Shown here in pieces: positions 6,831 to 62,200 of a stretch of 64,000 nucleotides of DNA. How positions within the stretch are numbered: the first letter of the stretch is position 1; the number at the start of each line of letters is the position of its first letter. Below the pieces are notes generated by a model. It saw only the letters and a list, made by a program, of their open reading frames with translations, was not told the origin of the DNA and did not search any database. The DNA is from Psococerastis gibbosa (Eukaryota; Arthropoda; Insecta; Psocodea; Psocidae): NCBI GenBank assembly GCA_963971405.1, contig OZ020490.1, forward strand, positions 33,319,464-33,383,463. Reading direction: 5' to 3'. A program made the translations under genes and the position numbers.

Positions 6831-6873
<43 letters not shown>

Positions 6874-9800: not shown

Positions 9801-12800
9801 CACTTGGCTGTGCGTGGTGCTGGCCTTACAAGGTCTCCCCATTGCCTCGTGTTGTAGGTGTGGGTGTCCCCGTTTTGTTTAAATGTCCTCCACACCTCAG
9901 GTTTTAAGATATGTAAGATGCATCTAAATATGTACAGACTGTCATGATTCTTAATGATTTGAAGTGAGAGCGACAATTACTGTCAGGAGGTCCCAGTTTT
10001 AGCATGTAGCGGACTCCCCTCTTTTGGAGCCTGAGTACAGGGTCCATGTTCCTACGGAGGTCCCTCCCCTGGCCAATATGCCTGGCTATCTAGGGCTAGC
10101 AGATCATTTCTGGTCACTTCCGAAAGTTTTGTGAAGTTGACGCGTGTCTAGGGCGAAAACCGGGCAGTTTTGTGCGGTCGGCTGCAGTTGGCGAAATCGT
10201 CGAGAAAACGACAAGGAATATTCTGGTGGCCCTAAGGCTACAATAGAAATAACGCCGTTAAATCGCAACAGCAAAGTCGTTCATATGTCCCTGGCCATAA
10301 TGTCCTTTATTTATTGTGTTCGTTTGGGTGAGTAGTCCAAGCCTACAGAGTGTAATAAACGTATATTTTACTTACCAAGGCCCGCACAAGAAGAAAACAG
10401 ATAGACAGCAAGCTGACGGTAAGTGGACGGTGGTGCACAGCTATAGCTAAAAGAGTTTTTGCTTTCCAATTTATACGTAGTATAAGGAAAGCTTTGTGAT
10501 GGTCGAAATTTTCGATTCCGAGATTTCAACGGATTCACACGTTTTGAGGTCCCAGGAATCCAAAAAAGTGTTTTTTACGAAATGTCTGCCTGTCGCTCTG
10601 TCTGTCTGTATGTCTGTATGTCTGTTCTTCAGTTTCCGGGTAAACTCCTCGGTTGATTTTAATGAAATTTGGCATGTAGATTCACAAAAATCATACCTCG
10701 GGACTATTTTTTTTCATTTTGGGCTTACTCAATTTTTGGGGGTTTTATTATCAAAAAAACTCCAAAAAAAACGTCTAAAAAACGGCTCCATCGATTTCTT
10801 TTAAATTCATATACATTAATGTTGACAAAATGCGTGGGGTCGCTTGCCCTTTGATAGTTTGCTTCTGGGGGTGAAAAAATTTTTAATGAAAAATGACTAA
10901 AAAATAATTTTTCTGCGAAACCTTTCAATCGATGATTTCTACCTTCAGGCATGTTTTAGGTGTTAAATTGAGTAACGAAACCGGACAGGTTGCGTTCCCA
11001 AGCAATTATTTGTTTTTGTGCAAATATTTTTATTTTTTTTTGAAAAAATCAAGCTCAAATGCATTGCGTGCCCTGCCATTATTGCTGTGTGGTAATGTGT
11101 TGGTCTGACCTATCTAGAATTTATCTCACCTCCAGTGACGTAAAGTGGACATTTTCTCATTTTTCTAATTTTGATAAAGTGGAAAGCATGTTCGAGTAAA
11201 CTCGGACCGGTTCTTTTAATTAGGTCTGTGTAGTCATCAGCCAATCAATGTTCCAGTCCTGGATCCACAATGAGCCGACCAAGTATCAGATAGATCGGCA
11301 TAGAGGCGTTCGCAGAAGACCTCAAGAAAGATATGAGATGCGGAACCTACTTGGAGCTCAAGAGAACGGCCCAAGACAGGGAGGAGTGGAGAAGGAGGTG
11401 GAAAGATTTGCTGCAAACCAATCGCTAGATTGCAATTACAGAAGAGACATTTGGGCCCGAGTTCCACTTTGTCTTGTTTTTTCTCAACTCCCTTTCCGGA
11501 ATAAGAGTTAGAAAGTTAGCAAATAATAGTAGGTTTAGTTAGTAATAGGCCTATAAAGAATAGCAGTTAGTGTTGCCTGAACGCAATTACTCGTACTATG
11601 AAATTTTCCTTTGAAACAAGTGGTAAAAAATATTTTATTTTATTTCAGTCATCTTTCATACCAAGCTGTGCAAATTCATGGCCTAGTATTACTGGCATCT
11701 CAGTTGGATATTTTGAAAGAAAATTTAGTAAAACTATTGCAAACAGTGGAAGTAGACGAAGATGGAATGTCAGTTGATAAATCTAAAGTTGGTAAGTTTT
11801 GGCCGATTTTTCGATTTAACCGATCCAGCGGTGATGCTTCCTGGATTAATCCGACAAATAGGTATATTTTATATTTATACAGTGTTAGTCTTATTTATTG
11901 GGCTCCGTTCAAAACAGTAAAGGGAAAATGGGTAAATAGGCTACTCTTCAAAATGAAATGAAATGATACGAAATTATATTAGGGCATTTTAACCACATAC
12001 ATGTAATGTAATATTACAACAGACCCTTTAATGACTTCGGTGGCACGGTGGTAGCGTGTTTGTACTTGTGCGAGTCTCAACATACCTAGTGATCGAAGAC
12101 GTGTCGTAACTAGACACAAGTACCCATTGCGTTACTTAATTAGGCTAATGAAGAGGTAAATCCCATACATTTTTCAAATTTAATATAGAAATAAAAGAAA
12201 TATTGACATTTTTTGTTTTATTCTTAAGCCAACCTAGTTGGGGCTATAAAGCTCTCTCTTTCACTCAACTAGGAAAGCCAGGGGTCGCCTGCTTTACATG
12301 AAGCATGCTGGCCAGAAAATGTAGTAAGCTTAGGACTCAAACCAACAACCTATCGGGTGAAAGTTGGAGATCGTACCACTACTCTACATGTCCTCTCTAA
12401 ATTGTTTGTGACCCGCCATTGGCGTTTTAACCTATGATGCCAGGGGAAAATATGTATCCACAGTAAAAAAAAAAAAAAAAAAAAACAAGGGAACAACGGA
12501 ATGTATAAAAACTTTTTTCTTTACTCTAAGTTCACAAAAACTTATTAATAATCGGTCTTTTTCAGCTTTAGCATTGGCCCATAGGAAGCTTAATGACTGG
12601 ATCAAATGTCATCAGAGAACATTAACGTAACTATGCTATTATACAATACCATAAATATTATTATTATTAATCAACCAAATTATTTTGTGGGTTCAGGGGT
12701 TGCCAATGCCATTTGCCAACTTCCTCTTAAAATAATACAAAAGTAAATTATATAATAGTGCTTGAAATTCTTCTATTGAACTACTAGTCTATTTAAACTT

Positions 12801-16837: not shown

Positions 16838-17498
16838 TTTCCTATAGTTAAATTTCGGACATCTCCGGGGGGGGGGGGGTCATCCCCCTGACGTCACTAG
16901 AGGTGACGTAAATTTTAGATAGGTTAGACCAACACATTACCACACAGCAATAATGGCAGGGCACGCAATGCATTTGAGCGTGAATTTTCATTTTTTCAAA
17001 AACATTTTTTTTGCACAAACCAAATAGTTTTTTGGGAAAGCAACCTCTCCGGTTTCATTACTCAATGTAACACCTAAAACATGCCTGAAGGTAAAAATCA
17101 TCGATAGAAAGGTTTCGCAGAAAAATTATTTTTTAGCCATTTTTCATTAAAATTGAGTTATTTTTATTTTTTACCCCCAGAAGAAAACTATCAAGGGGCA
17201 TGCGACAACCCGCATTTTGTTAACATTGGTAACGACTACAATCTATGTGAATTTAAACGAAATCAATGGAGCCGTTTTTGAGAAATAATTTTTTTAGACG
17301 TTTTTTTGGAGTTTTGGAGAACAGACAGACAGACAGACATACATACATACATACAGACATACAGACAGACAGAGTGACAGACAGACATTTCGTAAAAACC
17401 ACTTTTTTGGGTTCCTGGGACCTCAAAACGAAATCTCGGAATCGGAAATTTCGACCATGACAAAGCTTTCCTTATACTACGTATAAATTGGAAAGCAA
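16838..17498 (-). mobile_element. A element, 3' truncated
   Basis: Minus strand: starts TTGCTTTCCAATTTATACG at 17498, has a degenerate (TCTG/TATG)n core at 17319-17390, and reaches the C-tract near 16868, but lacks the terminal hairpin. Confidence 0.6.
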
Positions 17499-19350: not shown

Positions 19351-20085
19351 GTAGGGATAGGACTTGGTGAATATTCTTCTTCTTCTGCCTCTACAGCCCG
19401 TGATGAGCTTTGGCAGTCATCTCGGTTTTGTATAACGCTCCACCATCGAAGGACTCCCAAGTCGAGAAGATCAGTTTCCGGCTCATCTTTCCTGGAACTT
19501 GGAGAAAGGTGGGTGTAAACCCATAGGGTCTACTTCAGAAGATTTCTGATGATCGCTTCCTGGTGAAAATCGTGCACTTTCATGCTGTCGGCCAACTCGA
19601 AAGCGAAATCGACAAGAAATTTTCTGTTAGCTCTACGACTACAATTGAAGAGATGTCGCAAAATCGCGACTGTGGGGATCGCCAGTGTGTATCGGGCCCT
19701 TTTTTCCAATTCCTGTTTGAACCGAATCTACAATCACTGTCTCGTACAAATTTCATTAATTATTCACTGTTACTTTTATTGGCACAAGGACAACTATATG
19801 TATTTTAGACTGTATCAATATCGTCAACTACTATGGCCATTGGCAGCACCCCCAAGTTTCGACAAAAAAGCAACCCCTAAATAATTAATTAAATAATTTC
19901 CTGTGTTGTGCGCGTCTCTTTGCATACCGTGTACGGCACCCTTTTCGCTATTGTGTTTTTGGAAGTTCGTGATTACGACAGCTAGTAGTAAAAGTTAATA
20001 GTAATACGTTTTATAGTGTAGATCAGCGAGTCTAATAGGCCTATTCTTGTTATTTCTCTTTATTAGAATGAGGAACAAAAGGAAC

Positions 20086-20154
20086 TAACCTAACCTAACC
20101 TAACCTAACCTAACCTAACCTAACCTAACCTAACCTAACCTAACTCGTATCATT
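20086..20154. repeat. Interstitial telomeric repeat, (TTAGG)n on the minus strand
   Basis: Thirteen exact TAACC units plus TAAC, with no variants. TTAGG is the ancestral insect telomere motif. It lies 255 bp before the OR2 start codon, far from any visible chromosome end. Confidence 0.9.
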
Positions 20155-26400: not shown

Positions 26401-29400
26401 CAATAGTCATCATGACTATTTGAATCGATTTGAGCCTAAAGCTGAAGGGAGCATACAAAATCTCCCCGCCTGCGGGCTTGCTATGGCGATTATTGCTTTG
26501 CAATTTATACGTAGTATAAGGAAAGCTTTGTGATGGTCGACATTTTCGATTCCGAGATTTCAACCGATTTACACGTTTTGAGGTCCCAGGAACCCAAAAA
26601 AGTGGTTTCTATGAAATGTCTCTCTGTCGCTTTGTCTGTCTGTCTGTCTGTCTGTCTGTGCGTCGATTTCCGGGCAAACTACTAGGTCGATTTTGATGAA
26701 ATTTTGCATGTAGGTTTACAAAAATCATACCTCGGAACGATGTTTTTTATTGGGGCTAACTCAATTTGGGGCGTTTCATTCTCAAAAAACTCCAAAAAAA
26801 CGTCTAAAAAATTATTTCTCAAAAACGGCTCCAACGATTTCTTTTCAATTCACATATATTGTAGTCGTTATTAATGTTAACGAAATACGGGGGATCGCTG
26901 GCCCCTTGATAGATTGCTTCTGGGGGTAAAAAATAAAAATAACTAAATTTTGATGAAAAATGAAAAAAACATTATTTTTCTGCGAAGCCTTTCTAACGAT
27001 GATTTATACCTTCAGGCGTGTTTTAGGTGTTAAATTGAGTAACGAAACCGGACAGGTTGCTTTCCCAGAAAAGCAATTGATTTTGTAAAAAAAAAGTTTT
27101 TTTTGAAAAAATGATAGAAAATTCACGCTCGCTCAAATGCATTGCGTGCCCTGCCAGTATTGCTGTGTGGTAATGTGTTGGTCTGACCTATCTAGAATTT
27201 ACCTCACCTCCAGTGACGTCAGGTGGACAACCCCCCCCCCCCCCCCCGAGATATCGGAAATTTAGCCATAGGAAAATTATTTACCATGAAATTACCCATT
27301 TTCTCTATCTACTAATTTTGATAAATTGGAGAGCATGTTCGAGTAAACTCGGACCGGTTCTTTTAATTATAAACTGGGATTGAAAATGTTAACAATATAA
27401 TTTTACAATGTGTGACGCTCTTATGCGCAACTTGGTAGTTTTCCTCCTTCATTTGGTCATAGCATGATCCAAATATGTTAAAACAAAGTTAAGTAACGAC
27501 TTTCCGAGTATAGCTGGGATCAGCGGGTGTGAGATCGATCTACAGCCAAGCTAAGCATAGGGAAGCAAATACAACTTAGTTTCTTATCGGTTTCCCTGCT
27601 GAAAGCTGTAGACTGGTCTCGCAATGAGGTTCTGTAGGGACAGTTTTGGTCACTAGGTTCGCTAACGACAAACCGATATCCATATTATTCAAAATGGCCG
27701 CCGTTTGCATACGAAAACTAAGCTCTTAGCATCTAATTAATTCTTTTAATATTTTTTATAATATTTTTACTATGCCTGGACCTTATTTCGCTGCATATAA
27801 TTTAATATATATATATTCTCCATGAGTTATAGCAAAATATCACTCTAAAATAATACGTAATTAAAAATCATTTTAAAATAGTATTGAGGCTTATGGAAAA
27901 ATCAACGCTTTGATATCATTGCAACTGGTGCTGCCATCTACAAAATGACGCCACAAATGAACCCCATTGGCTGATCGCCATCACTTGAAGAACAGCCAGC
28001 ACGGAGAAAGGTTTTGTTGAAGTCTATACTGGGTGATAACCAAATCATAGTGTGTGAGAAAAGTGGATGTACAGTAAGGTAATTGATATTATGTGTACGG
28101 ATCCAGCCGAATGTGAGTATGAACATAAACGGCTGTGGGGATGGGAATGCCCCCCCCCCTCCTTTATTTAACAACCCTTTGAGTTTTTCCTACATTTTAA
28201 TCATATATTGCAACTGCGGCCTGCGGCGAGTCGCCACGTCGCGGCTCGACTCCCACGGCAACGCCGACTTATCCCTACTTTAGCAGCAAGTTTTCGTCAG
28301 TGTGTAATTCCAAGAATCGTAGTGAACTTCAAAGACATTATAATAGGAGAATGTGAAAATGTAATAATAATAACCGAATAATAAATGAGTTTTTGTGAAA
28401 ATGTAATAATAATAAATGAGTTTTTCCTTAGCAGTAAGTCCTGAATCCACTGAAACTGTTGAAGCAGATCAGCTGATAGTGCGGGCTAGTCGGAAGAGTG
28501 TTAGGTCGGGAAATCTTGGCAAAGGTGAGTCGAGCGAAGATGCTGGCCTCACAAATTTACAAGTTTACATTTTTAACTGCAGGGATAAGTTTATATAAAA
28601 CATTCGTGTAAAAAACGGCATAATACGCCCTGAGACCGCAGACCACCCAACGGCCATTTCTTCTTCCTCTTCTTCTAATGCTTCTTCTATCGCAGATTAG
28701 CGATCAACATGACAATGTAGTCCTTATAACTATACTAGGGAATTGCAATGCAGTGGTTTCCCGTTGCTTTCTACATCCTTATGCCGTTGACTCATCATTG
28801 CGTTCCTCCATCCTGGGGATCAGTTTCCCAACCCTAGGATCAAGGCCGTGCTCAGGTTTTGATGTCGGGGGGGGGGGGGGGGTCCAATTTTTTTTTAACG
28901 TAATTTATTAATGAATTAATGGATAAATTCGTCAAATCATACAGGTTTACATAAAAAAAATTATTTACGGGGGGGGGGGGGTACGGACCCCATGGACCAC
29001 TCCCCTGGACACGGCCATGCCTAGGATAAAAAAGTTGCTTCTCACCACGAGGAGGTACAGATTTTATGGATTATCGCGTCTTCGCCTCTGAGATCATAAG
29101 GCATTACTCAGAAGCAGGCGCGGATCTAGAATGGGACCAAGGAGGGGGCTAAGATTAAATACGAATATTTTTTGAAAAATAAGCCTGAAATATTGAGGTT
29201 TTTACGCATTTTCAGAGCAATAAGGGTTCTATATTATAGGTTATTAATACAATCGACGACAAGGCGGGTCCGGGGGTCTCCCCTGGGAGGAAATTTGTAA
29301 AAAAAATAGGACAGAAATAGTGGGGTTTTACGCATTTTGAGAAACCTAATGGGGGGGGGGATTATGGCCCCATAGCGTGTTCTTCACACTTTCTTATTTC

Positions 29401-32156: not shown

Positions 32157-32192
<36 letters not shown>

Positions 32193-32904
32193 GCTCTGTC
32201 TGTTCATTGATTTCCAGGCAAACTACTCGATTGATTTTGAAGCAATTTTTCATGTAGGTTCACAAAAAAACTATACCTCGAGACCATTAGACCATTTATT
32301 TTTATTTTGGTCTAACTCAATTTTGGGGGGTTTTATTCTCAAAAAACTCCAAAAAGACGTCTAAAAAATTATTTCTCAAAAACGGCTCAACGATTTCTTT
32401 TGAATTCACATATATTGTAGTCGTTATTAATGTTAACATAATGCGGTGAGTCGCTTGCCCCTTGCTAGTATGCTTCTGGGGGTAAAAAAACAAAAAAACA
32501 TCAATTTTAATGAAAAATGACCAAAAAATAATTCGTCTGTGGAACCTTTCTGTCGATGATTTCTACCTTCAGGTATTTTTTAGGTGTTAAATTGACTCAA
32601 GAAACTGGACAGGTCGCTTTCGAAAAAACAACTATTTGGTTTTGTGCAAAAAATTAAAGAAATTCACGCTCAAATGCATTGCGTGCCCTGCCATTATTAT
32701 TGTGTGGTAACGTGTTGGTCTGACCTATCTAGAATTATTTACCTCACCTCCAGTGACGTCATATGGACACAGCACCCCCCCCCCCCTCCCGTAGATATCC
32801 GAATGTTAACCATAGGAAAGTTATTTACCATGAAATTACTCATTTTCTCTCTCTACTAATTGATAAATTGGAAGGCATGTTCGAGTAAACTCGGACCGGT
32901 TCTT
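32047..32904 (+). mobile_element. A element, nearly complete
   Basis: TACGTAGTATAAGGAAAGC start, (TCTG)n at 32160-32191, a C-tract near 32776, and a hairpin with GGACCGGTTCTT. A reversed A fragment (ATTTCGTAAG to GCTTTCC) follows at about 32920-33030. Confidence 0.65.
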
Positions 32905-35735: not shown

Positions 35736-36261
35736 AACAGTCATTAATTCAATCGAGCGGTCAAGGCCGTAGCCAGAGGGGGGGGGGGCTGTGAAATGTC
35801 TGTTAAAACTTATTGGGTTAGCCCGATTCAATCCTAACAAGTCTGCATAATCTGGGCAAGTTTTATATCATTAAAACGCTTTTTTACATTTACAGACAAC
35901 ATTCCAAGAGCAATTTAAGAAGACGTACATTGCATTTGCATTTTCAAACGGTTATGTACCCTGCCTAGATATTTTGATTTCCAAATCAAAACTAAGGGTG
36001 TTGCACTTCACAGCTTCACTAGCACTACTGATATCTACAACGTACGTCTTACATGTTTTTTACTTTTTACTCTTTAAAAGTTGGAGTCTAAAAAGAACCC
36101 TCTTCTTGTTCATTTTGAGACGGCAAGTGGTGTTGTTGTATATTACTTTGAGGATTGCCTTTAGCATGTTGCGGTTTAAGCAGTTTCAAACTCTGTTCAG
36201 AATTTGGAATGTAATAGTTTTCATGTTGACGAGGATGCGAGAAGAAAACAGGTAAGTACCT

Positions 36262-47405: not shown

Positions 47406-48616
47406 ATAATAATAATAATAATAATAATATGTGTATTGAAAACAATTTTACATTTACACTGATCAGCAGTAGCCACAACAGCTACATAGCTGAAAGAGAA
47501 TCAACGTACATTTATCACTCAAAATTAAAAATTAAAAAATAGAAATAAATAAAATAAAATACAGCATCACATGATAAATTTGTAGAATTTCATATTTTTC
47601 ATTTAAATAAAATAAATAAATAAGGGGTTTATGAGGACAGGAGGAACTCCACGTTTTCTACTGCACACAGCCAGACTCTAACTTGACTGGCGAAAGTTCT
47701 GGGCTTCATGTCAGGGTCAAAAAAGAAGGGCAGAGCGTTTAGCAACCTCGGAACCAAATAGTTCGGAGATTTCCGAAAGTTTTCCACCGCAGGAAAAGGC
47801 ACCAGAAAACGCTCTGCTCTTCTTAGAGAATGTGCTATAGGGATACGGATAGGGAGATTTTCACATGATTTAAAATATAATTTAAGCAAATTGTAGATGT
47901 ACAAGTGGCGAAGAGGAAGTAATTCGAATTCGGAGAATAAGAGCCATGAAGAGAAGAACCTGGGTTTTTTGGCTATGGTACGCAAAATGTACTTTTGAGT
48001 CACAAAAAGAGGCTGTAGGTGTGTGAGATAGGTCCCTCCCCATACCGAGATCCCATAAGCCACCCTTGATTCAAATAAGGAGCGGTAGAGGAGAAGCAGG
48101 GTTTCCTGAGGACAAACATTTCTGAGGAAAAATAATTGACGAAGAAAAAGACGACCGGATTTGTTAAGCTCTTTTAAATGAGTGTGCCATTTGACATTTG
48201 AGTCGTGCCAAACACCAAGGTATTTGGCAAATTCAAGTTTACTTATTTCTGGGCAACCACCCACGCAATTTGGTAGCATACAGTCTGGAGTATGGCAACA
48301 AATTTTTAGACTCTTTACTTGTTCATCTCGGGTCAGATGAAACGGCAGAAAGCCAGTTTTTGAGATATTTATCGATAACCCATGAAATTGGAACCACGCA
48401 TAAAGTTTTTGTAGGTCCTCAGTTGCCTGCCCCTCCACCTCCGCCCAAGAGTCCCCTGAGTACAGTAGAACCGTGTCATCCGCAAAGGCAACGACTCTAC
48501 CTCCAAATTTGTGATCGCAGAGCTCATTCAAATAAATTATAAAAAGAATTGGACCTAAAATTGAGCCCTGAGGGACAGAGCAAGCAATGGGCAGCCTATC
48601 GCCATCAAAAGTAAAG
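47406..48616 (-). mobile_element. LINE with reverse transcriptase, 5' truncated
   Basis: Minus-strand frame from about 48616 to 47629. SVPQGSILGPILF (RT block 4), VVAFADDTVLLY (catalytic FADD, block 5), FAKYLGV (block 7), then YGISVWGGTYLTHLQPL (thumb region) and a stop. An uninterrupted frame of over 300 codons means a fairly young copy of a Jockey/CR1-type non-LTR retrotransposon. The 5' part (endonuclease and first RT blocks) is missing; a SINE G fragment abuts at 48617. The 3' UTR ends in (ATT)n at 47406-47430. Confidence 0.8.
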
Positions 48617-48649
48617 CGACTTCGGTGGCAAGGTGGTAGCGGGCATTAT

Positions 48650-50862: not shown

Positions 50863-51706
50863 AGAACCGGTCTGAGTTTACTCGAACATGCGTTCCAATT
50901 TATCAAGTAGTAGCTAGAGAAAATGAGTAATTTCAATATAATTTTCCTATAGTTAAATTTCGGGCATTCTGGGGGGGGGGGGGGTTATCCACCTGACGTC
51001 ACTGAAGGTGAGGTAAATTCTAGATAGGTCAGACCAACAAATTACCACACAGCAATAATGGCAGGGCACGCAATGCATTTGACCGTGAATTTTCTATCAT
51101 TCATTCAAAAACATTTTTTTTGCACAAAACCAAATAGTTTTTTAGGAAAGCAACCTGTCTGGTCTCATTACTCAATTTAACACCTAAAACATGCCTGAAG
51201 GTAGAAATCATCGATGGAAAGGTTTCAGAGAAAAATTATTTTTTAGTCATTTTTCATTAAAATTGAGTTATTTTTATTTTTTACCCCCAGAAGCAAACTA
51301 TCAAGGGGCCAGCGACCCCCCCCCACATTTTGTCAACCTTAATAACGACTACAATATATGTGAATTCAAAAGAAATCGTTGGAGCCGTTTGGGATAAATG
51401 ATTTTTTTAGACGTTTTTTATGAGTTTTTTTTTAAATAAAAGTTGAGTTAGCCCAAAATAAATAAAAAATTTCCGAGGTATGATTTTTGTCAATCTACAT
51501 GCCAAATTTCATCAAAATCGACCGACGAGTAGTTTGCCCGGAAATCGACGCACAGACAGACAGACAGAGAGACAGACAGACAGACATTTCGTAAAAACCA
51601 CTTTTTTGGGTTCCTGGGACCTCAAAACGTGTAAATCCGTTGAAATCTCGGAATCGAAAATTTCGACCATCACAAAGCTTTCCTTATACTACGTATAAAT
51701 TGGAAA
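50863..51706 (-). mobile_element. A element, nearly complete, directly abutting the previous one
   Basis: Begins AAAGAACCGGTCTGAGTTTA and ends ACGTATAAATTGGAAAGCAA. The (GACA)n core is at 51553-51590. Confidence 0.65.
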
Positions 51707-53640: not shown

Positions 53641-54290
53641 TAGTAGTAGTAGTAGATTTTTTGGCAGAGTCCCAGGCCAAGGTGAGGGCCCATAGGACAC
53701 ACGCCCCATCTTGCTCACTCGTACAACCCGATTGCGGTCGCGAAGCGCGCCGCCTCCTTTGGGCGAAGCTGTTTCCCTGCCTGTAGTCCTCCCAAAGCAA
53801 AACCGACCGAGGAAAGACGTTTTCGCCAGACAGCCGGGCAGTCCATCAGCACGTGCCACCCGGTCTCAGCGCCAATCTCGCAGAAGCGGCAATCCTGCGT
53901 GGGAACCTGTACACCCAAGCGAGCAAGGTGAACCCGGAAGGGGCCGTGTCCCGTCAGCATAGCAGCAGCAGCGCGTACTGCTCGTCGACTGCTGGAGATG
54001 ACATCTCGTTTTAGCCGCTCATCCGGTCCGAGCAAACATGCCTTGGAGTGATGCATTCCGCTTGCACTGGACCACACCGAGCTCCACTTGTCCCTCATGA
54101 CGCAGTTCCCCTGGTTAAGGATAACCCTCCATGGGACCGGGAGAATAGGCTCCGGACCAACTGGAAAAACTGCTGATCCTGCACGAGCTAGTTCGTCCGC
54201 TTTTTCATTGCCAAGCACTCCACTGTGACCGGGAACCCACACCAGCGTTACGGAATTATGGTGTCTCAATGGATATATTGATTGTAATTG
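53640..54290 (-). mobile_element. LINE 3' fragment with RNase H domain
   Basis: Minus-strand frame 54269-53715: VTLVWVPGHSGVLGNEKADE (the last RNase H motif, with the conserved His and Asp), then CRFCEIGAETGWHVLMDCPA. 5' truncated near 54290. The 3' UTR ends in a (TAC)n tail at 53641-53655. The last ~60 bases of the UTR resemble the end of SINE C. Confidence 0.75.
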
Positions 54291-56234: not shown

Positions 56235-59200
56235 ATGAATTACATTGGAAGGCACAAAATTTCGGTAAGTTGAGAAGTATCTTACATAAATAAATAAATA
56301 ATGACTTTGTTTTTAGCTGAGACCACCCCAGCGAAGTTCGACCATCGGGCCATTAGGTGTCTTCTTCCGGCTGTAGGTCACATCCTTTAATTGGCGATGG
56401 CCTACTCGATACTCGGTATCATAAATCAAAATCTATATTTCGCGGTTTGTTCTCAGAAGTTTCTGGTTCAACGTCCATAAGTTTTCTAACGAGACAGACT
56501 ACCCCATGTTTCTGATTAATTAATTACCGGTGGACTATCAGACATGACGTTCAGATTTTCGAGTTGCTTGCTGAATAAATAACGACTTATTCAGATTTGT
56601 TTGGCATAATTGTATTCTACAGTCAGCAGTCTTAGTGGTTCCTTATTTACGGGTTGAATGTAAACCAATTTGGTTGTTCAGATTAATATGGCGAAATTTC
56701 ATGGTCAAGGAATGAAGGTGTACAAATTTATTCAAATTTGATTCGGGAGTAACAACTCCGTAAGCCGGCCGCCATACTAAGTTGAATCCAGCGGACCAGA
56801 GCAGGTTCAAAGATGCAGATAACTTGGTCGTGTGCACAGTGCCGGTAGGGAAACATGGTAGGACTTGTCCTGGTCACCTCCGAACTAATCGTGTGACTTC
56901 ACTGCGTTTCCCAAGTGGTTCGAATCCACTATAATCAGGAGTTCCACTGTCCTATGGGCCCACACCGTGGCCTGGGACTGTGTCCAACCATTCTACTACT
57001 TCTAACAACTCCGTAAGCTATGATGAAGCAGTAGACCCCGGGAGCTCGGTTGCTGCTGAGCCTCTGAGATACAATCTTAGAAGTCTACGCAGTTCCACTG
57101 AAGATTTCGATCGCAGATGTTGACGAAACGTTTGGAAGTACGCTTTCAGAACGACCACAGACTATCATCCCGGATTCTACTGCTTCGTTATGTAACTCCG
57201 GCCGTGAAAGTCTTTGTAATTATGTAACTCCGTAAGTTGGATAGCGGTACTATACTCTATTTTATCGCTCGTAGCCGCGGTGTAGTTTGACATAATTTTA
57301 TGTTTCAGAAAACATTTCAGGAGCAATTTCAAAAGACATACATCACGTTTATATTGATGGGCACCTACGTACCCTGTTTAGACATATTTATACCAAAAAA
57401 TTACATTCGCAACGTCTTGTACGTTGCCTCAAACGTTGCCTGGATTATTTTATTGGTCCAAGTCCCACACGTTTTTTATTATTTAATTTTTAAAAGCAGT
57501 CACTTACCGCAAGCAGTGTTCTTATATCTTTGGAGGAGGCAGATTCTAGTGACATATCTGACAATTAAACATGCTTTGACGTTCTTACGCCTCAAAAAAT
57601 ATGACGATTTGTTCAAAGATTGGAATAAACATTTTCAATGCGATGAAGATGCAAAAAGAAAGCAGGTGAATATACTATAGAGTCCATTTATACAAAATGA
57701 TTTTTCGGCGACAGAATCACATGGAAAGTAAACAGGTGAAGTTACTTAGAGTCCATTTATACAAAATGATTTTTCGAGCGACAGAATCACAAGTAAAGTA
57801 AACAGGTTAAGTTACTTAGAGTCCATTTTTACAAAATGATTTTTCGAGCGACAGAATCACAAGACAGAATGACAAAGTAAAGTAAGCAGGTAAAGTTACT
57901 TTGAGTCCATTTATACGAAGTGATTTTCGAAGCAACAGAATCGCAAGTAAAGTAAACAGGTAAAGTTACTTAGAGCCCATTTATACAAAATGATTTTTCG
58001 AGCAACAGAATCACAAGTAAAGTTATTTAGAGGCCATTTATACAAAGTGATTTTTCGAGCGACAGAATCACAAGACAGAATCACAAGTAAAGTTATTTAG
58101 AGTCCATTTATACAAAGTGATTTTTCGAGCGACAGAATCACAAGACAGAATCACAAGTAATGTAAACTGGTAAAGTTACTTAGAGTCCATTTACACGAAG
58201 TGATTTTTCGAGCAACAGAATCACAAGTAAAGTAAACATGTTAAGTTACTTGGAGTCCATTTATACAAAATGATTTTTCAAGTGACAGAATCACACGTGA
58301 TGTAAATAGGGAAAGTTACTTAGAGCCCATTTATACAAAATGATTTTTCGAGTGACAGAATCACAAGTAATGTTATTTAGAGTCCATTTATACAAAGTGA
58401 TTTTTCGAGCGACAGAATCACAAGTAATGTAAACAGGTAAAGTTACTTAGAGCTCATTTATACAAAATGATTTTTCGAGCGACAGAATCACAAGTGAAGT
58501 AAAGTAAACTGGTTAAGTTACTTAGAGTCCATTGATACAAAATGATTTTTCGAGCGACAGAATCACAAGTAAAGTTATTTAGAGTCCATTTATACAAAAT
58601 GATTTTTTGAGCGACAGAATTACAAGACAGAATCACAAGTAATGTAAACAGGTAAAGTTACTTAGAACCCATTTATACAAAATGATTTTTTGAGCGACAG
58701 AATCACAAGTAAAGTTATTTAGAGTCCATTTATACAAAATGATTTTTTGAGCGACAGAATTACAAGACAGAATCACAAGTAATGTAAACAGGTAAAGTTA
58801 CTTAGAACCCATTTATACAAAATGATTTTTTGAGCGACAGAATCACAAGTAAAGTTATTTAGAGTCCATTTATACAAAATGATTTTTTGAGCGACAGAAT
58901 TACAAGACAGAATCACAAGTAATGTAAACAGGTAAAGTTACTTAGAACCCATTTATACAAAATGATTTTTTGAGCGACAGAATCACAAGTAAAGTTATTT
59001 AGAGTCCATTTATACAAGGTGATTTTTCGAGCGCCAGAATCACAGGATAATCTTGCTATTTGTTTGGTACTTTCCTATTTATGCGTTCGTATAAGAAAGG
59101 TTGATGTATCACATTATATAACTGAAATTAGAGGATATGGATAAAACTGGACTTTGGCCCCACAATCTACGCCTTTCCTTTAATTTCGGTTATAACGTGG

Positions 59201-62200
59201 AGATCATCTCTTCAATCACAGTTAATGTCATTGCTATATATACAATATTATACTACAATGTAATGCATCACATCATCATCATCATATAGTTACGGCCTTT
59301 TATGGCATAATGGTAGCTTGTTCGTACTTGTGCGAGTTTCTACACATCATGCGATCGGTGACCTGTCGTAACTCAACAAAGGTATATCCTACAGAGGCGA
59401 CTGAAGAGGTTATTCGGATACGTTCATTAAATTGTGTGTAGGTATGCGAATAGTCTTTTTCAAAAAAATTAATAAATCAAAATCAATCACTGATCACCGT
59501 TATTTTCTCTGTTTATTTTCGAGATTTCAGCGGATGTAGGTGTTTTGAGATCCCAGGAAATTTTATTCAGTCTGCTCGTCGTTGGTCTTTCTGTTCACAA
59601 ATGACGGATTTTGAAATGTAATTTATAATAATTCATTGACAAAGTAATGCAGGTTATACAAAGAAAAAGAAGTGTAAACATTATATTATATTATATTTTA
59701 TTAATTGCATTCGCAGTTTCATTCAATACATATTATACATATTGCAGGAGATAATTGAGCAGAAAATGAAGAAATCCTATAAATACATAGTCTACTTCTA
59801 CATAGTTTGCGCTGTGTTGACCCAAACGTATGGCATCCGCTTTATTCTCGACCCATATTCATTCTTGGCCCTTTTAAATTGGGTGCCTCACAGTGTCGAA
59901 GACGCCAATCATTTCTTATATGGTATTCTTCAAGGTGTAATTTATTTATACTGTTTTGCGTAAGTAACTCTTCGTAACATCATATACAGGGGAATACGAT
60001 ATGCGATATCACACTAATTCAAAGCCACATTACCGATGGGATTGAGCTCTGGGGCAATTCTAGTGCTGGCAACCTGCTCAGAATTTTTAAACTCCAAAAA
60101 AGAGCTATTAGGTATATTGTGGGAATCAATCAAAGAAAGAGTTGTAGACAGCACTTCATTGACCTGAGCATACTAACGGTACCTAGCCTGTATATTTTGC
60201 ACGTGGCTGTGTATATTCACAAAAATTTAAGCAGTTTCCAGCGGGTAGAACATGTCCACAATCATGGAACGAGGTCAAGGTCAAACTTGGTTGCCATGCA
60301 ACACAAAACCCGGTGGTACGAATGTAAGCCGTCTTTTATCGGTGTGCGCATATATAACAAAATGCCCAATTTAATAAAGACAGCCAAGAACTTGGCAGAG
60401 TTCAGAAGGAGTTTGAAGTGTTACCTTATTCAAAGGACATTGTACAACATTCAAGAGTTTTTTGAATAGGGAAGCACTTTGAACTTTTCTTTGGATTCTG
60501 TTAAGTTCTTGACTGCATTGTACAATTTAACATTTATTATTTACGCTATTGTATTGAAAATCGGTGCAATATAGACTTTCTATTCTATTCTATTCTATTA
60601 TATTCTATACAGGACAAAATGATAGATGTTTGAGCACCCCCAAATTTTGTTTCCAATCGTAAATTGTATTTTCTGTTATAGAGAGTGTTCGTACAGCACT
60701 GCACACCTCCATGCACTGATCATGCTATCAGCACAGTTACAAGTCTTACAGGAAAATCTTGAAAAAATTATAAAGACTGTAGATATTGATCAAAATGGAT
60801 TTGCCATTAATGATTGTAAAGATGGTAAGTTTCCAATACCGTACGCTTATTATGTAATCCCCCATGGCCATACCGTGTCATGGCATTGTTATTGTTTACA
60901 ATACCAATTTGTGTAGTAGACTATTACTCTTACATTAATTGTCTGCCCATTGTAGAGTACCTATGGAGTTGTCCCAAGAATCATTCCCGTGCTTTAGGAC
61001 AGGAAAAACCTATTTTAAAACCGATATTTAACCACGGAAAAATTATTTACCTTGTATCTATCTAATCTGTGTATCTAATTAATTTGCTGTTGATATAAAA
61101 TATAATAATAATAATAATAATTTTCAGTACTAAACTAATTGATAAATGGGCAAGCACTCGTACCGGTTCTTTACATATATTACAAAACAATACAATATAT
61201 ATTTCCGTTAAATTATACAATACAAGTAAAGTATAAAAGAAAACTGTCATTTAATATGTTTCCATTTTGCAGCTTCGAATATTGCTCATAAAAGGCTCAA
61301 AAATTGGATTAAGTGTCATCAAAAAACATTAAGGTACCACCTGACTCACTGTATATACTGTATATGCTCTATAGGTAGATATTCACAGGATATCCTATTG
61401 TGTACAAGGAGTTAAAAATGAAAAAAATTATGTTGCCATTATCCGCCAGAACAGAGCCTATTAGAAACTGTAACGCGCTGAGACTATACCAGTCAGTCTA
61501 CGTGCGTGTTGAGTCCTGGTCACCTCCGAATTAATCGTGTGAGGTGTGACTATATAATATGTTCTTCGAGTGGTCCGGAATCCACAATAATCAGGAGGTC
61601 CACCCTGTCAGTCAACTCCTCTTCGCCCCGAGGAGAAGGAGTCTGCCCTTAGGGTGCCTCAAATTAATAAATAGACTCACTCCCCCCGGCAGGCTGACAG
61701 TTTTGCTTATAGTAGCAAGAAATGGCTTGAAGCCATCGGCAGCAGTACTTAGGCGGGGTTTCCACATACGTCAATCGTCAATGAGAAATATGGTTTTGAC
61801 GTGGTAGCAGAATTTTTAGTATGTCTTTAATGTCTACTAAACCTTCAATTTCACATGTCTCATTGACGGTTGACGTATGTGGAGACTCCGCCTAAGGAAA
61901 AACTAAATTATACTAACTTGCAGTATTAACCTATATTAACCACAGTCATTGATACCATCAGATACAGTAGAAATAAGAAGCACAACGTATACATTGCTCA
62001 ATCATCGAAATTAGCGGATTTAGAAAAAACTGGACTTGGCGGGGTACGGACCCACGATTGTCGCCTAGTCAGGGTGTCGTACAGCGGTTAAGACGACGCC
62101 TCGGGTAGACGTAGATTGTGGGTTCGAATCCCGCAGAGTTCAGTTTCCTAAATCCTCTAATTTTGTTTAAATAACGAGGAATTTACCTCTTCAACCTAAG

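What the first reader, a model, noticed from the sequence alone, without database searches (positions are those of the whole stretch)
57650..59045. A minisatellite that seems to have grown out of an exon's own 5' splice site
Unit 1 of the array aligns across the end of OR4 exon 57309-57665. The AAGCAG|GTGAAT donor is echoed in later units as AAACAG|GTAAAG (for example near 57888, 57958, 58434, 58650, 58790 and 58930), which is close to the consensus 5' splice site. Each unit also carries a T-rich stretch before GACAG that looks like a 3' splice site. A true donor followed by a dozen decoys could shift splice choice, create micro-exons, or slow splicing of this receptor.
Basis: partly seen in the sequence, partly recalled or inferred. 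Interest (0 to 1): 0.75.

Follow-up and report, generated by a model that had tools for sequence, protein, structure and literature searches.

The report
Transposon-seeded repeat copying a splice site
In what looks like an insect odorant-receptor gene, the end of a small transposon sits beside a splice site, and the two together have been copied head to tail into about twenty units, leaving a row of look-alike splice sites whose effect on the gene is untested.

Summary
A tandem array (57655-59065) starts 11 nt inside the OR4 exon and repeats its 5' splice site. The ~70-nt unit is a chimera: about 22 nt are exon end plus intron start (AAAGAAAGCAG|GTGAATATACT), about 48 nt are the left terminal inverted repeat of a dispersed MITE-like element (44 scored matches, a lower bound). 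The last unit runs about 20 nt further into the element. So an element most likely landed about 12 nt after the donor, and splice site plus element end were amplified together. Of 16 homologous exon matches, 12 splice at exactly the same place; only a related pair has any boundary copy, so the exon part is ancestral. Of 19 later junction slots, 12 keep the junction (11 GT, 8 CAG|GT); 7 lost it by a 13-bp deletion. A 140-bp double unit repeats exactly about 3.3 times, so that part is young and probably variable. Seven decoys score slightly below the true donor, but reading past that donor meets a stop after four codons. Such arrays are known from amphioxus as "mirages", reportedly without disturbing splicing. 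A second, independent array lies at the homologous boundary of another receptor exon. An effect on splicing is untested.

The parts
57309..57665 (+). OR4 exon (119 codons, ends ...DEDAKRKQ, phase 0)
   Evidence: Open frame. 17 homologous matches in the genome including itself. Joined OR4 exon pieces hit Pfam 7tm_6 at E 3e-4, 20.4 bits, under the curated cut-off of 25.8.
57655..57677 (+). Founding splice junction: 11 nt of exon plus the first ~12 nt of intron, the source of the non-transposon part of the unit
   Evidence: 18 of 22 identical to the first downstream junction copy; next-best match in window 1-57000 is the OR3 donor
57666..57671 (+). True 5' splice site GTGAAT
   Evidence: Same position as the donor in 12 of 16 homologous matches; highest PWM score of 127 GTs in the intron
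57678..57680 (+). In-frame TAG met by any transcript that reads past the true donor (V N I L stop)
   Evidence: Sequence, frame
57655..59065 (+). Whole chimeric array: 20 transposon-end copies and 13 junction copies including the original
57678..57719 (+). First copy of the element's left terminal inverted repeat; the other 19 units start at 57749, 57819, 57903, 57973, 58030, 58100, 58183, 58253, 58323, 58380, 58450, 58525, 58582, 58665, 58722, 58805, 58862, 58945, 59002
   Evidence: nhmmer with a profile of 31 aligned rows (30 distinct dispersed copies) finds all 20, E 1.4e-4 or better (for the duplicate row); unit starts
57736..58937 (+). Decoy donors: GT at 57736, 57806, 57890, 57960, 58170, 58240, 58437, 58512, 58652, 58792, 58932 (the slot at 58310 has GG)
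57715..57735 (+). Only potential micro-exon that is both a multiple of 3 and open (NHMESKQ); 1 of 31 acceptor-donor pairs of 9-90 nt
58552..59017 (+). Exact higher-order repeat, period 140 bp (83-nt unit plus 57-nt unit), about 3.3 copies with no difference
59045..59065 (+). Last unit continuing into the element's interior (GATAATCTTGCTATTTGTTT); no right end recognised between here and the next exon
59748..59959 (+). Next OR4 exon (EIIEQKMKKS...); acceptor ...ATATTGCAG|GAG

Best explanation
The array is a 'mirage'-type minisatellite with a transposon as seed. A short inverted-repeat DNA element inserted, judged by comparison with its other copies, about 12 nt downstream of the OR4 5' splice site. 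A tandem duplication, perhaps helped by A-rich microhomology, then joined a point about 48 nt inside the element to a point 11 nt inside the exon. This made a ~70-nt unit of exon end, donor and element end. Slippage or unequal exchange expanded it. Some units lost the donor by a 13-bp deletion between GTAAAGT repeats, others gained a 13-bp duplication, and a 140-bp double unit was amplified recently. The first donor probably remains the one used, so the array is most likely near-neutral intronic sequence with occasional mis-splicing. Shown: chimeric composition, the ancestral exon part, the dispersed element, unit structure, exact recent repeats. Inferred: order of events, microhomology, normal splicing, length polymorphism.
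For: Array starts in the exon. Left part equals the exon end; 12 of 16 homologous matches splice at exactly that place, and of the 15 of them tested only the related pair L052/L054 has a copy straddling the donor. Right part equals the element's left end in all 20 units. Related dispersed copies lie on 8 contigs (44 matches, a lower bound; sequences), 4 of them nearly end to end. The element-exon junction was found only here within the limits of the patterns used. Exact 140-bp repeats. True donor is the best-scoring GT in the intron. Amphioxus mirages reported to splice normally (PMC3087553 section 16; PMC3902484 passage).
Against: No target-site duplication could be shown, and only a truncated left end of the element remains. 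The true donor is only 0.8 bits above the common decoy, has practically the same U1 pairing energy and, like the decoys, lacks G at +5, so exclusive use of the first donor is not guaranteed. Human boundary repeats are reported to generate alternative splicing through novel introns (PMC2812944, passages). Odorant-receptor identity is weak by Pfam: 20.4 bits under a cut-off of 25.8, and none of the 6 matches of a genome search with 7tm_6 lies in this window. No RNA data.
Confidence: 0.82

Rival explanations
1. Decoy-donor model: the repeated donors compete with the true one, shifting splice choice or making micro-exons, and so lower or tune OR4 output, with array length as the dial.
For: Six decoys are CAG|GTAAAG (4.01 bits) and one CAG|GTGAAG (3.51), against 4.78 for the true donor; U1 duplex energy is -8.3 to -8.4 against -8.4 to -8.6 kcal/mol. 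OR4's donor is weaker than those of OR2 and OR3, though stronger than OR1's by the matrix. One micro-exon (57715-57735) would be in frame. Boundary repeats in human duplicated genes can change splicing (PMC2812944, passages).
Against: Acceptor-like sites are poor. 30 of 31 micro-exon pairs shift the frame or carry a stop. Every downstream donor includes the TAG at 57678. Amphioxus mirages are reported not to disturb splicing (PMC3087553, PMC3902484).
Confidence: 0.12
2. The minisatellite is purely transposon-derived and its AAAGTAAACAG|GTAAAG part resembles the exon end by chance.
For: Short A-rich sequence; GGTGAAGT also occurs in the element's interior (8-nt match). One dispersed copy (L005) has a loosely similar flank.
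Against: Unit 1 contains the actual exon end in register. Score 24 against at most 16 for the element, and 0 of 56,971 window positions as high; the only next-best cluster is the paralogous OR3 donor. Pattern hits elsewhere are at control level with no element recognised beside them.
Confidence: 0.03
3. Selection removes decoys: the donor core decays faster than the rest of the unit because decoys harm splicing.
For: In 10 non-redundant units that keep the junction, 9 of 90 donor-core positions differ from the array consensus against 19 of 450 in the element part (Fisher p 0.035). Seven of 19 slots lost the donor by deletion.
Against: The full junction gives 15 of 220 against 19 of 450 (p 0.19). 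Units are not independent, several changes are shared, the 9-mer was chosen afterwards, and gaps in the element part were left out.
Confidence: 0.07
4. The copy number is an assembly artefact.
For: Exact 140-bp copies are the kind of tract that assemblers mis-count; no reads were available.
Against: Units 1-13 differ from one another by substitutions and indels, which an assembly echo would not explain.
Confidence: 0.04

Closest known systems
'Mirage' minisatellites of amphioxus (Adh3, globins BflGb6 and BflGb9, troponin C; similar repeats in PGBD5)
   Same: Tandem repeats that span an exon-intron boundary and repeat the splice site; units of 10-160 bp; homogenisation inside the cluster (PMC3087553 section 16, PMC3902484 passage)
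   Different: Here in what looks like an insect odorant receptor, and most of the unit is a transposon end, which gives a concrete seed; the globin paper calls the generating mechanism unclear
Minisatellites and satellites born from MITE or foldback terminal inverted repeats (Xstir of Xenopus, Tetris TIR-220 of Drosophila virilis)
   Same: Repeat unit taken from a terminal inverted repeat (table in PMC9659126, passages seen)
   Different: The unit here also holds coding exon sequence and a splice donor; the junction was found at this locus only
Internal tandem repeats at exon-intron boundaries of human segmental-duplication genes
   Same: Minisatellite units at boundaries of recently duplicated paralogues (PMC2812944, passages seen)
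   Different: Those have transcript evidence for altered splicing and novel introns; none was available here
Intron gain by tandem duplication (AGGT model of Rogers) and Introners
   Same: Tandem AGGT copies supply AG and GT; a mobile element is near a splice site (PMC4974935 passages; PMC9860276 search listing only)
   Different: No new intron is shown; the array lies inside an old intron, and the element did not bring the donor

Membership tests
Mirage-type boundary minisatellite | Tandem unit spans a genuine exon-intron boundary | tested here: met
Mirage-type boundary minisatellite | Copies carry splice signals | tested here: met
   11 of 12 retained junctions have GT, 8 of 12 have CAG|GT
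Mirage-type boundary minisatellite | Length instability between haplotypes | not testable with these tools
   One assembly; exact 140-bp repeats are suggestive only
Mirage-type boundary minisatellite | Normal mRNA splicing despite the copies | not testable with these tools
   No transcript data
Array derived from a MITE terminal inverted repeat | Unit homologous to the end of a short dispersed inverted-repeat element | tested here: met
   ends of my working consensus match in reverse complement, 56 of the first 60 nt (right end of that consensus read by eye)
Array derived from a MITE terminal inverted repeat | Target-site duplication of defined length | tested here: inconclusive
   4 near end-to-end copies show no clear duplication; superfamily not assigned
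Insect odorant receptor (7tm_6) | Pfam PF02949 match | tested here: inconclusive
   Joined OR4 exon pieces E 3e-4, 20.4 bits, below the 25.8 cut-off; none of four single exons matches 7tm_6; a genome search with 7tm_6 gives 6 matches, none in this window
Introner or newly gained intron | Intron position absent from paralogues | tested here: not met
   12 of 16 homologous matches have the donor at exactly the same position

The most novel reading that the evidence does not exclude
Transposon insertion beside a 5' splice site is a general way to start boundary minisatellites. In this insect's odorant-receptor family the same exon boundary is a hot spot where such arrays arise repeatedly and vary in length, giving receptor genes a fast-changing row of decoy donors that tunes splicing efficiency between individuals.
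Probability: 0.1. Interest if true: 0.8.

Novelty: new variant of a known kind. Interest (0 to 1): 0.5.

Why it matters
Boundary minisatellites have been reported in amphioxus, with the generating mechanism described as unclear (PMC3087553). This locus preserves the parts needed to read one origin: the ancestral exon end in paralogues, near-complete copies of the mobile element elsewhere, the junction between the two, and both decayed and freshly amplified units. It also offers a natural test of how a splicing machine picks one donor among eight near-equal ones.

Tried and rejected
Chance resemblance of the junction: rejected. A pre-formed array inserted from elsewhere: the patterns for the exon-element junction and for the donor-less unit junction found no other such locus (7 hits, all in this array, 0 control). 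L005 looked like an element preceded by AAAGTAAGCTTGCTGAAGT. I read that as part of another element fragment, since it resembles the element's own AAGATAAGCTTGCTG, and did not count it as an exon-like flank; this was judged by eye. Target-site duplication and superfamily: no clear answer. Right end of the element downstream of the array: not recognised. A faster decay of donors: only a post-hoc hint. Species: not identified. A wider survey of receptor genes found 6 7tm_6 matches, none in this window, but the loci could not be cut out, so no other gene family or further receptor was examined for boundary arrays. Donor PWM frequencies and the U1 sequence were recalled from memory (human-like), not taken from a call.

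A fault found on re-reading: loci L045 and L047 are matches on the minus strand, and read them on the wrong strand. One search repeated the donor location and the straddling test on the right strand: both splice at the same place and have no boundary copy, so the counts 3 of 16 and 0 of 16 stand. One search also showed that rows L022 and L026 of the 31-row element alignment are one element.

Full report
What was checked. The window lies at G000:C15:33319464-33383463 of an unnamed 409-Mb genome. Tandem Repeats Finder places the array from 57655, with overlapping rows of period 57, 70, 84, 140 and others.

Unit anatomy. Cutting at the recurring GAGTCCATTTATAC gives 20 units. The full unit is about 70 nt. 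Nineteen junction slots follow the true donor. Twelve keep the exon-derived junction. In 7 it is missing through a 13-nt deletion whose ends, read from the sequence, are GTAAAGT direct repeats. Some units carry a 13-nt duplication of GACAGAATCACAA. Near the 3' end a 140-nt double unit is repeated without a single difference from 58552 to 59017, so that part expanded recently.

The exon part is ancestral. A protein search with the OR4 exon found 17 matches in the genome including itself, four of them in this window. Of the 16 others, 12 have the donor at exactly the homologous position (10; L045 and L047). Three more have it within a few nucleotides: OR3 (L042), where the exon end is reached through a change of frame, L051, and L054, which has a 1-nt deletion. 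One, L055, is a fragment with stops and was not located. OR1, OR2 and the C2 paralogue end AAAGCAG, AAAACAG and AAAGCAG; OR3 has AAAACAG|GTAAGT. Beyond the donor the paralogues' introns show no copy of the unit, and the element profile finds nothing in L040-L055. A blind scan of window 1-57000 with the unit's junction finds nothing as good as the OR4 exon end (0 of 56,971 positions); the next-best score falls in one cluster only, the OR3 donor.

The rest is a transposon end. Besides itself the array region matched 22 places: one is the paralogous exon end on C2, the others lie in the unit. The six of these compared in detail share a longer sequence that continues past the unit (L003-L008). A search with one copy gave 44 matches on 8 contigs, a lower bound because 40 of 113 candidates were scored. 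Aligning 31 rows (30 distinct elements) gave a profile that finds all 20 units of the array, from profile position 2-4 to 46-51, with E-values of 1.4e-4 or better; the last unit runs to position 69. Weaker minus-strand hits in the array (E 0.0026 and above) are expected of an inverted-repeat element. The element's two ends are inverted repeats of each other: 56 of the first 60 nt of my working consensus match its other end (that end was read by eye), and 4 copies are nearly complete at about 200-230 nt. That is the layout of a miniature inverted-repeat element. No target-site duplication was clear, so I do not name a superfamily.

Uniqueness of the joint. The 22-nt junction pattern with up to 3 mismatches gives 24 hits genome-wide, 12 in this array and 12 elsewhere, against 13 for the reversed pattern. 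None of the 12 elsewhere has an element match within the ~280 nt checked. The donor-less joint occurs 7 times, all in this array, with no control hits.

Splicing. By a recalled human-like matrix the true donor (4.78 bits) is the best of 127 GTs in the intron. Second is AAG|GTGATT at 59019 (4.39), in the element part of the last unit. Six CAG|GTAAAG copies score 4.01 and the first copy 3.51. U1 pairing of these copies is practically that of the true donor, and none of them, nor the true donor, has G at +5. Against 15 paralogue donors the OR4 donor is average: the median is 4.79, and 5 of 15 score below 4.01 (13, 2). The frame argues against profitable use of decoys. GTG AAT ATA CTA TAG closes the frame four codons past the true donor. 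Of 31 acceptor-decoy pairs of 9-90 nt, 4 are open and only one (57715-57735, NHMESKQ) is also a multiple of three. The 19 acceptor-like sites have at most half pyrimidines.

A second array. A test of 16 exon ends (OR4 and 15 homologues) found copies straddling the donor in 3: OR4, and the related pair L054 and L052 on contig C14. The acceptor side of the same 16 exons gave 0 of 16 (L045 and L047 corrected). Of 10 other junctions in the window one, the OR1 second exon, has a single copy 1.2 kb away. In L054 a 164-172-nt unit of exon end, donor AGG|GTAAGT and intron start is present about 6 times; about 140 nt of it is exon-derived. L052 holds one degenerate copy (73% over 172 nt), so that duplication probably predates their split. 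L054's first, genuine exon copy differs from the later copies and from L052 by a 1-nt deletion, so the gene may be broken. Boundary arrays thus arose at least twice at this exon end, once with a transposon seed and once without a recognised one. Sixteen exon ends are too few to call it a hot spot, and no other gene family was examined.

Identity of the gene. OR4 as an odorant receptor rests on a weak Pfam match of joined exon pieces and on its paralogues; single exons do not match 7tm_6, and the genome search with 7tm_6 found 6 places, none in this window.

Comparison with print. Amphioxus 'mirages' have the same layout; their authors report that the data suggest normal splicing, describe length instability, and call the origin unclear (PMC3087553, section 16 read; PMC3902484, one passage). 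Human boundary repeats in duplicated genes are reported to generate alternative splicing (PMC2812944, passages), which speaks against assuming neutrality. Tandem-duplication intron gain is in PMC4974935 (passages). Repeat families from MITE ends are tabulated in PMC9659126, and minisatellite birth between short flanking repeats is summarised in PMC6947457 (passages). A C. elegans study links an intronic minisatellite to multiple alternative splicing (PMC4039745, abstract and outline). My searches listed no paper on a boundary minisatellite seeded by a transposon or in an insect receptor gene. I judged this from the listed titles and abstract starts only, and the library lacks most subscription journals.

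Verdict. The array is real and chimeric, and part of it is recent. It is best read as a transposon-seeded variant of a known kind of boundary minisatellite. Its effect on OR4 is open; my expectation is little effect.

Noticed in passing
L054 1739-2785 (G000:C14, about 28762200-28763246): Second boundary array in a related receptor exon: 164-172-nt unit with about 140 nt derived from the exon, donor AGG|GTAAGT and intron start, about 6 copies; the first exon copy has a 1-nt deletion relative to the later ones.
   Followed up: partly
L052, intron just after the exon end (G000:C14, about 28772149-28772316): One degenerate copy (73%, 172 nt) of the exon end plus donor; shared ancestry with the L054 array is likely.
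   Followed up: partly
window 35899-36251: The OR3 exon matches its relatives in one frame to 36210 and in another frame from 36219 to 36251, so OR3 may carry a frameshift.
   Followed up: no
window 10296-10348: 53-nt copy (81%) of the end of the OR1 second exon with its GTGAGTA donor, about 1.2 kb downstream; possibly a decayed duplicated exon.
   Followed up: no
window 20085-20144: (CTAAC)12, that is TTAGG, the common insect telomere repeat (recalled), away from a contig end.
   Followed up: no
window 6831-6873, 10583-10625, 17321-17387, 26617-26659, 32157-32203, 51552-51586: Repeated (TGTC)n / (ACAG)n tracts; (GTCY)n tracts carried by MITEs are described for moths and butterflies (PMC9659126 passage), so these may be mobile too.
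   Followed up: no
window 47629-48645 and 53715-54290, - strand: Long open frames that look like reverse transcriptase and RNase H pieces of non-LTR retrotransposons (motifs recalled, not searched).
   Followed up: no
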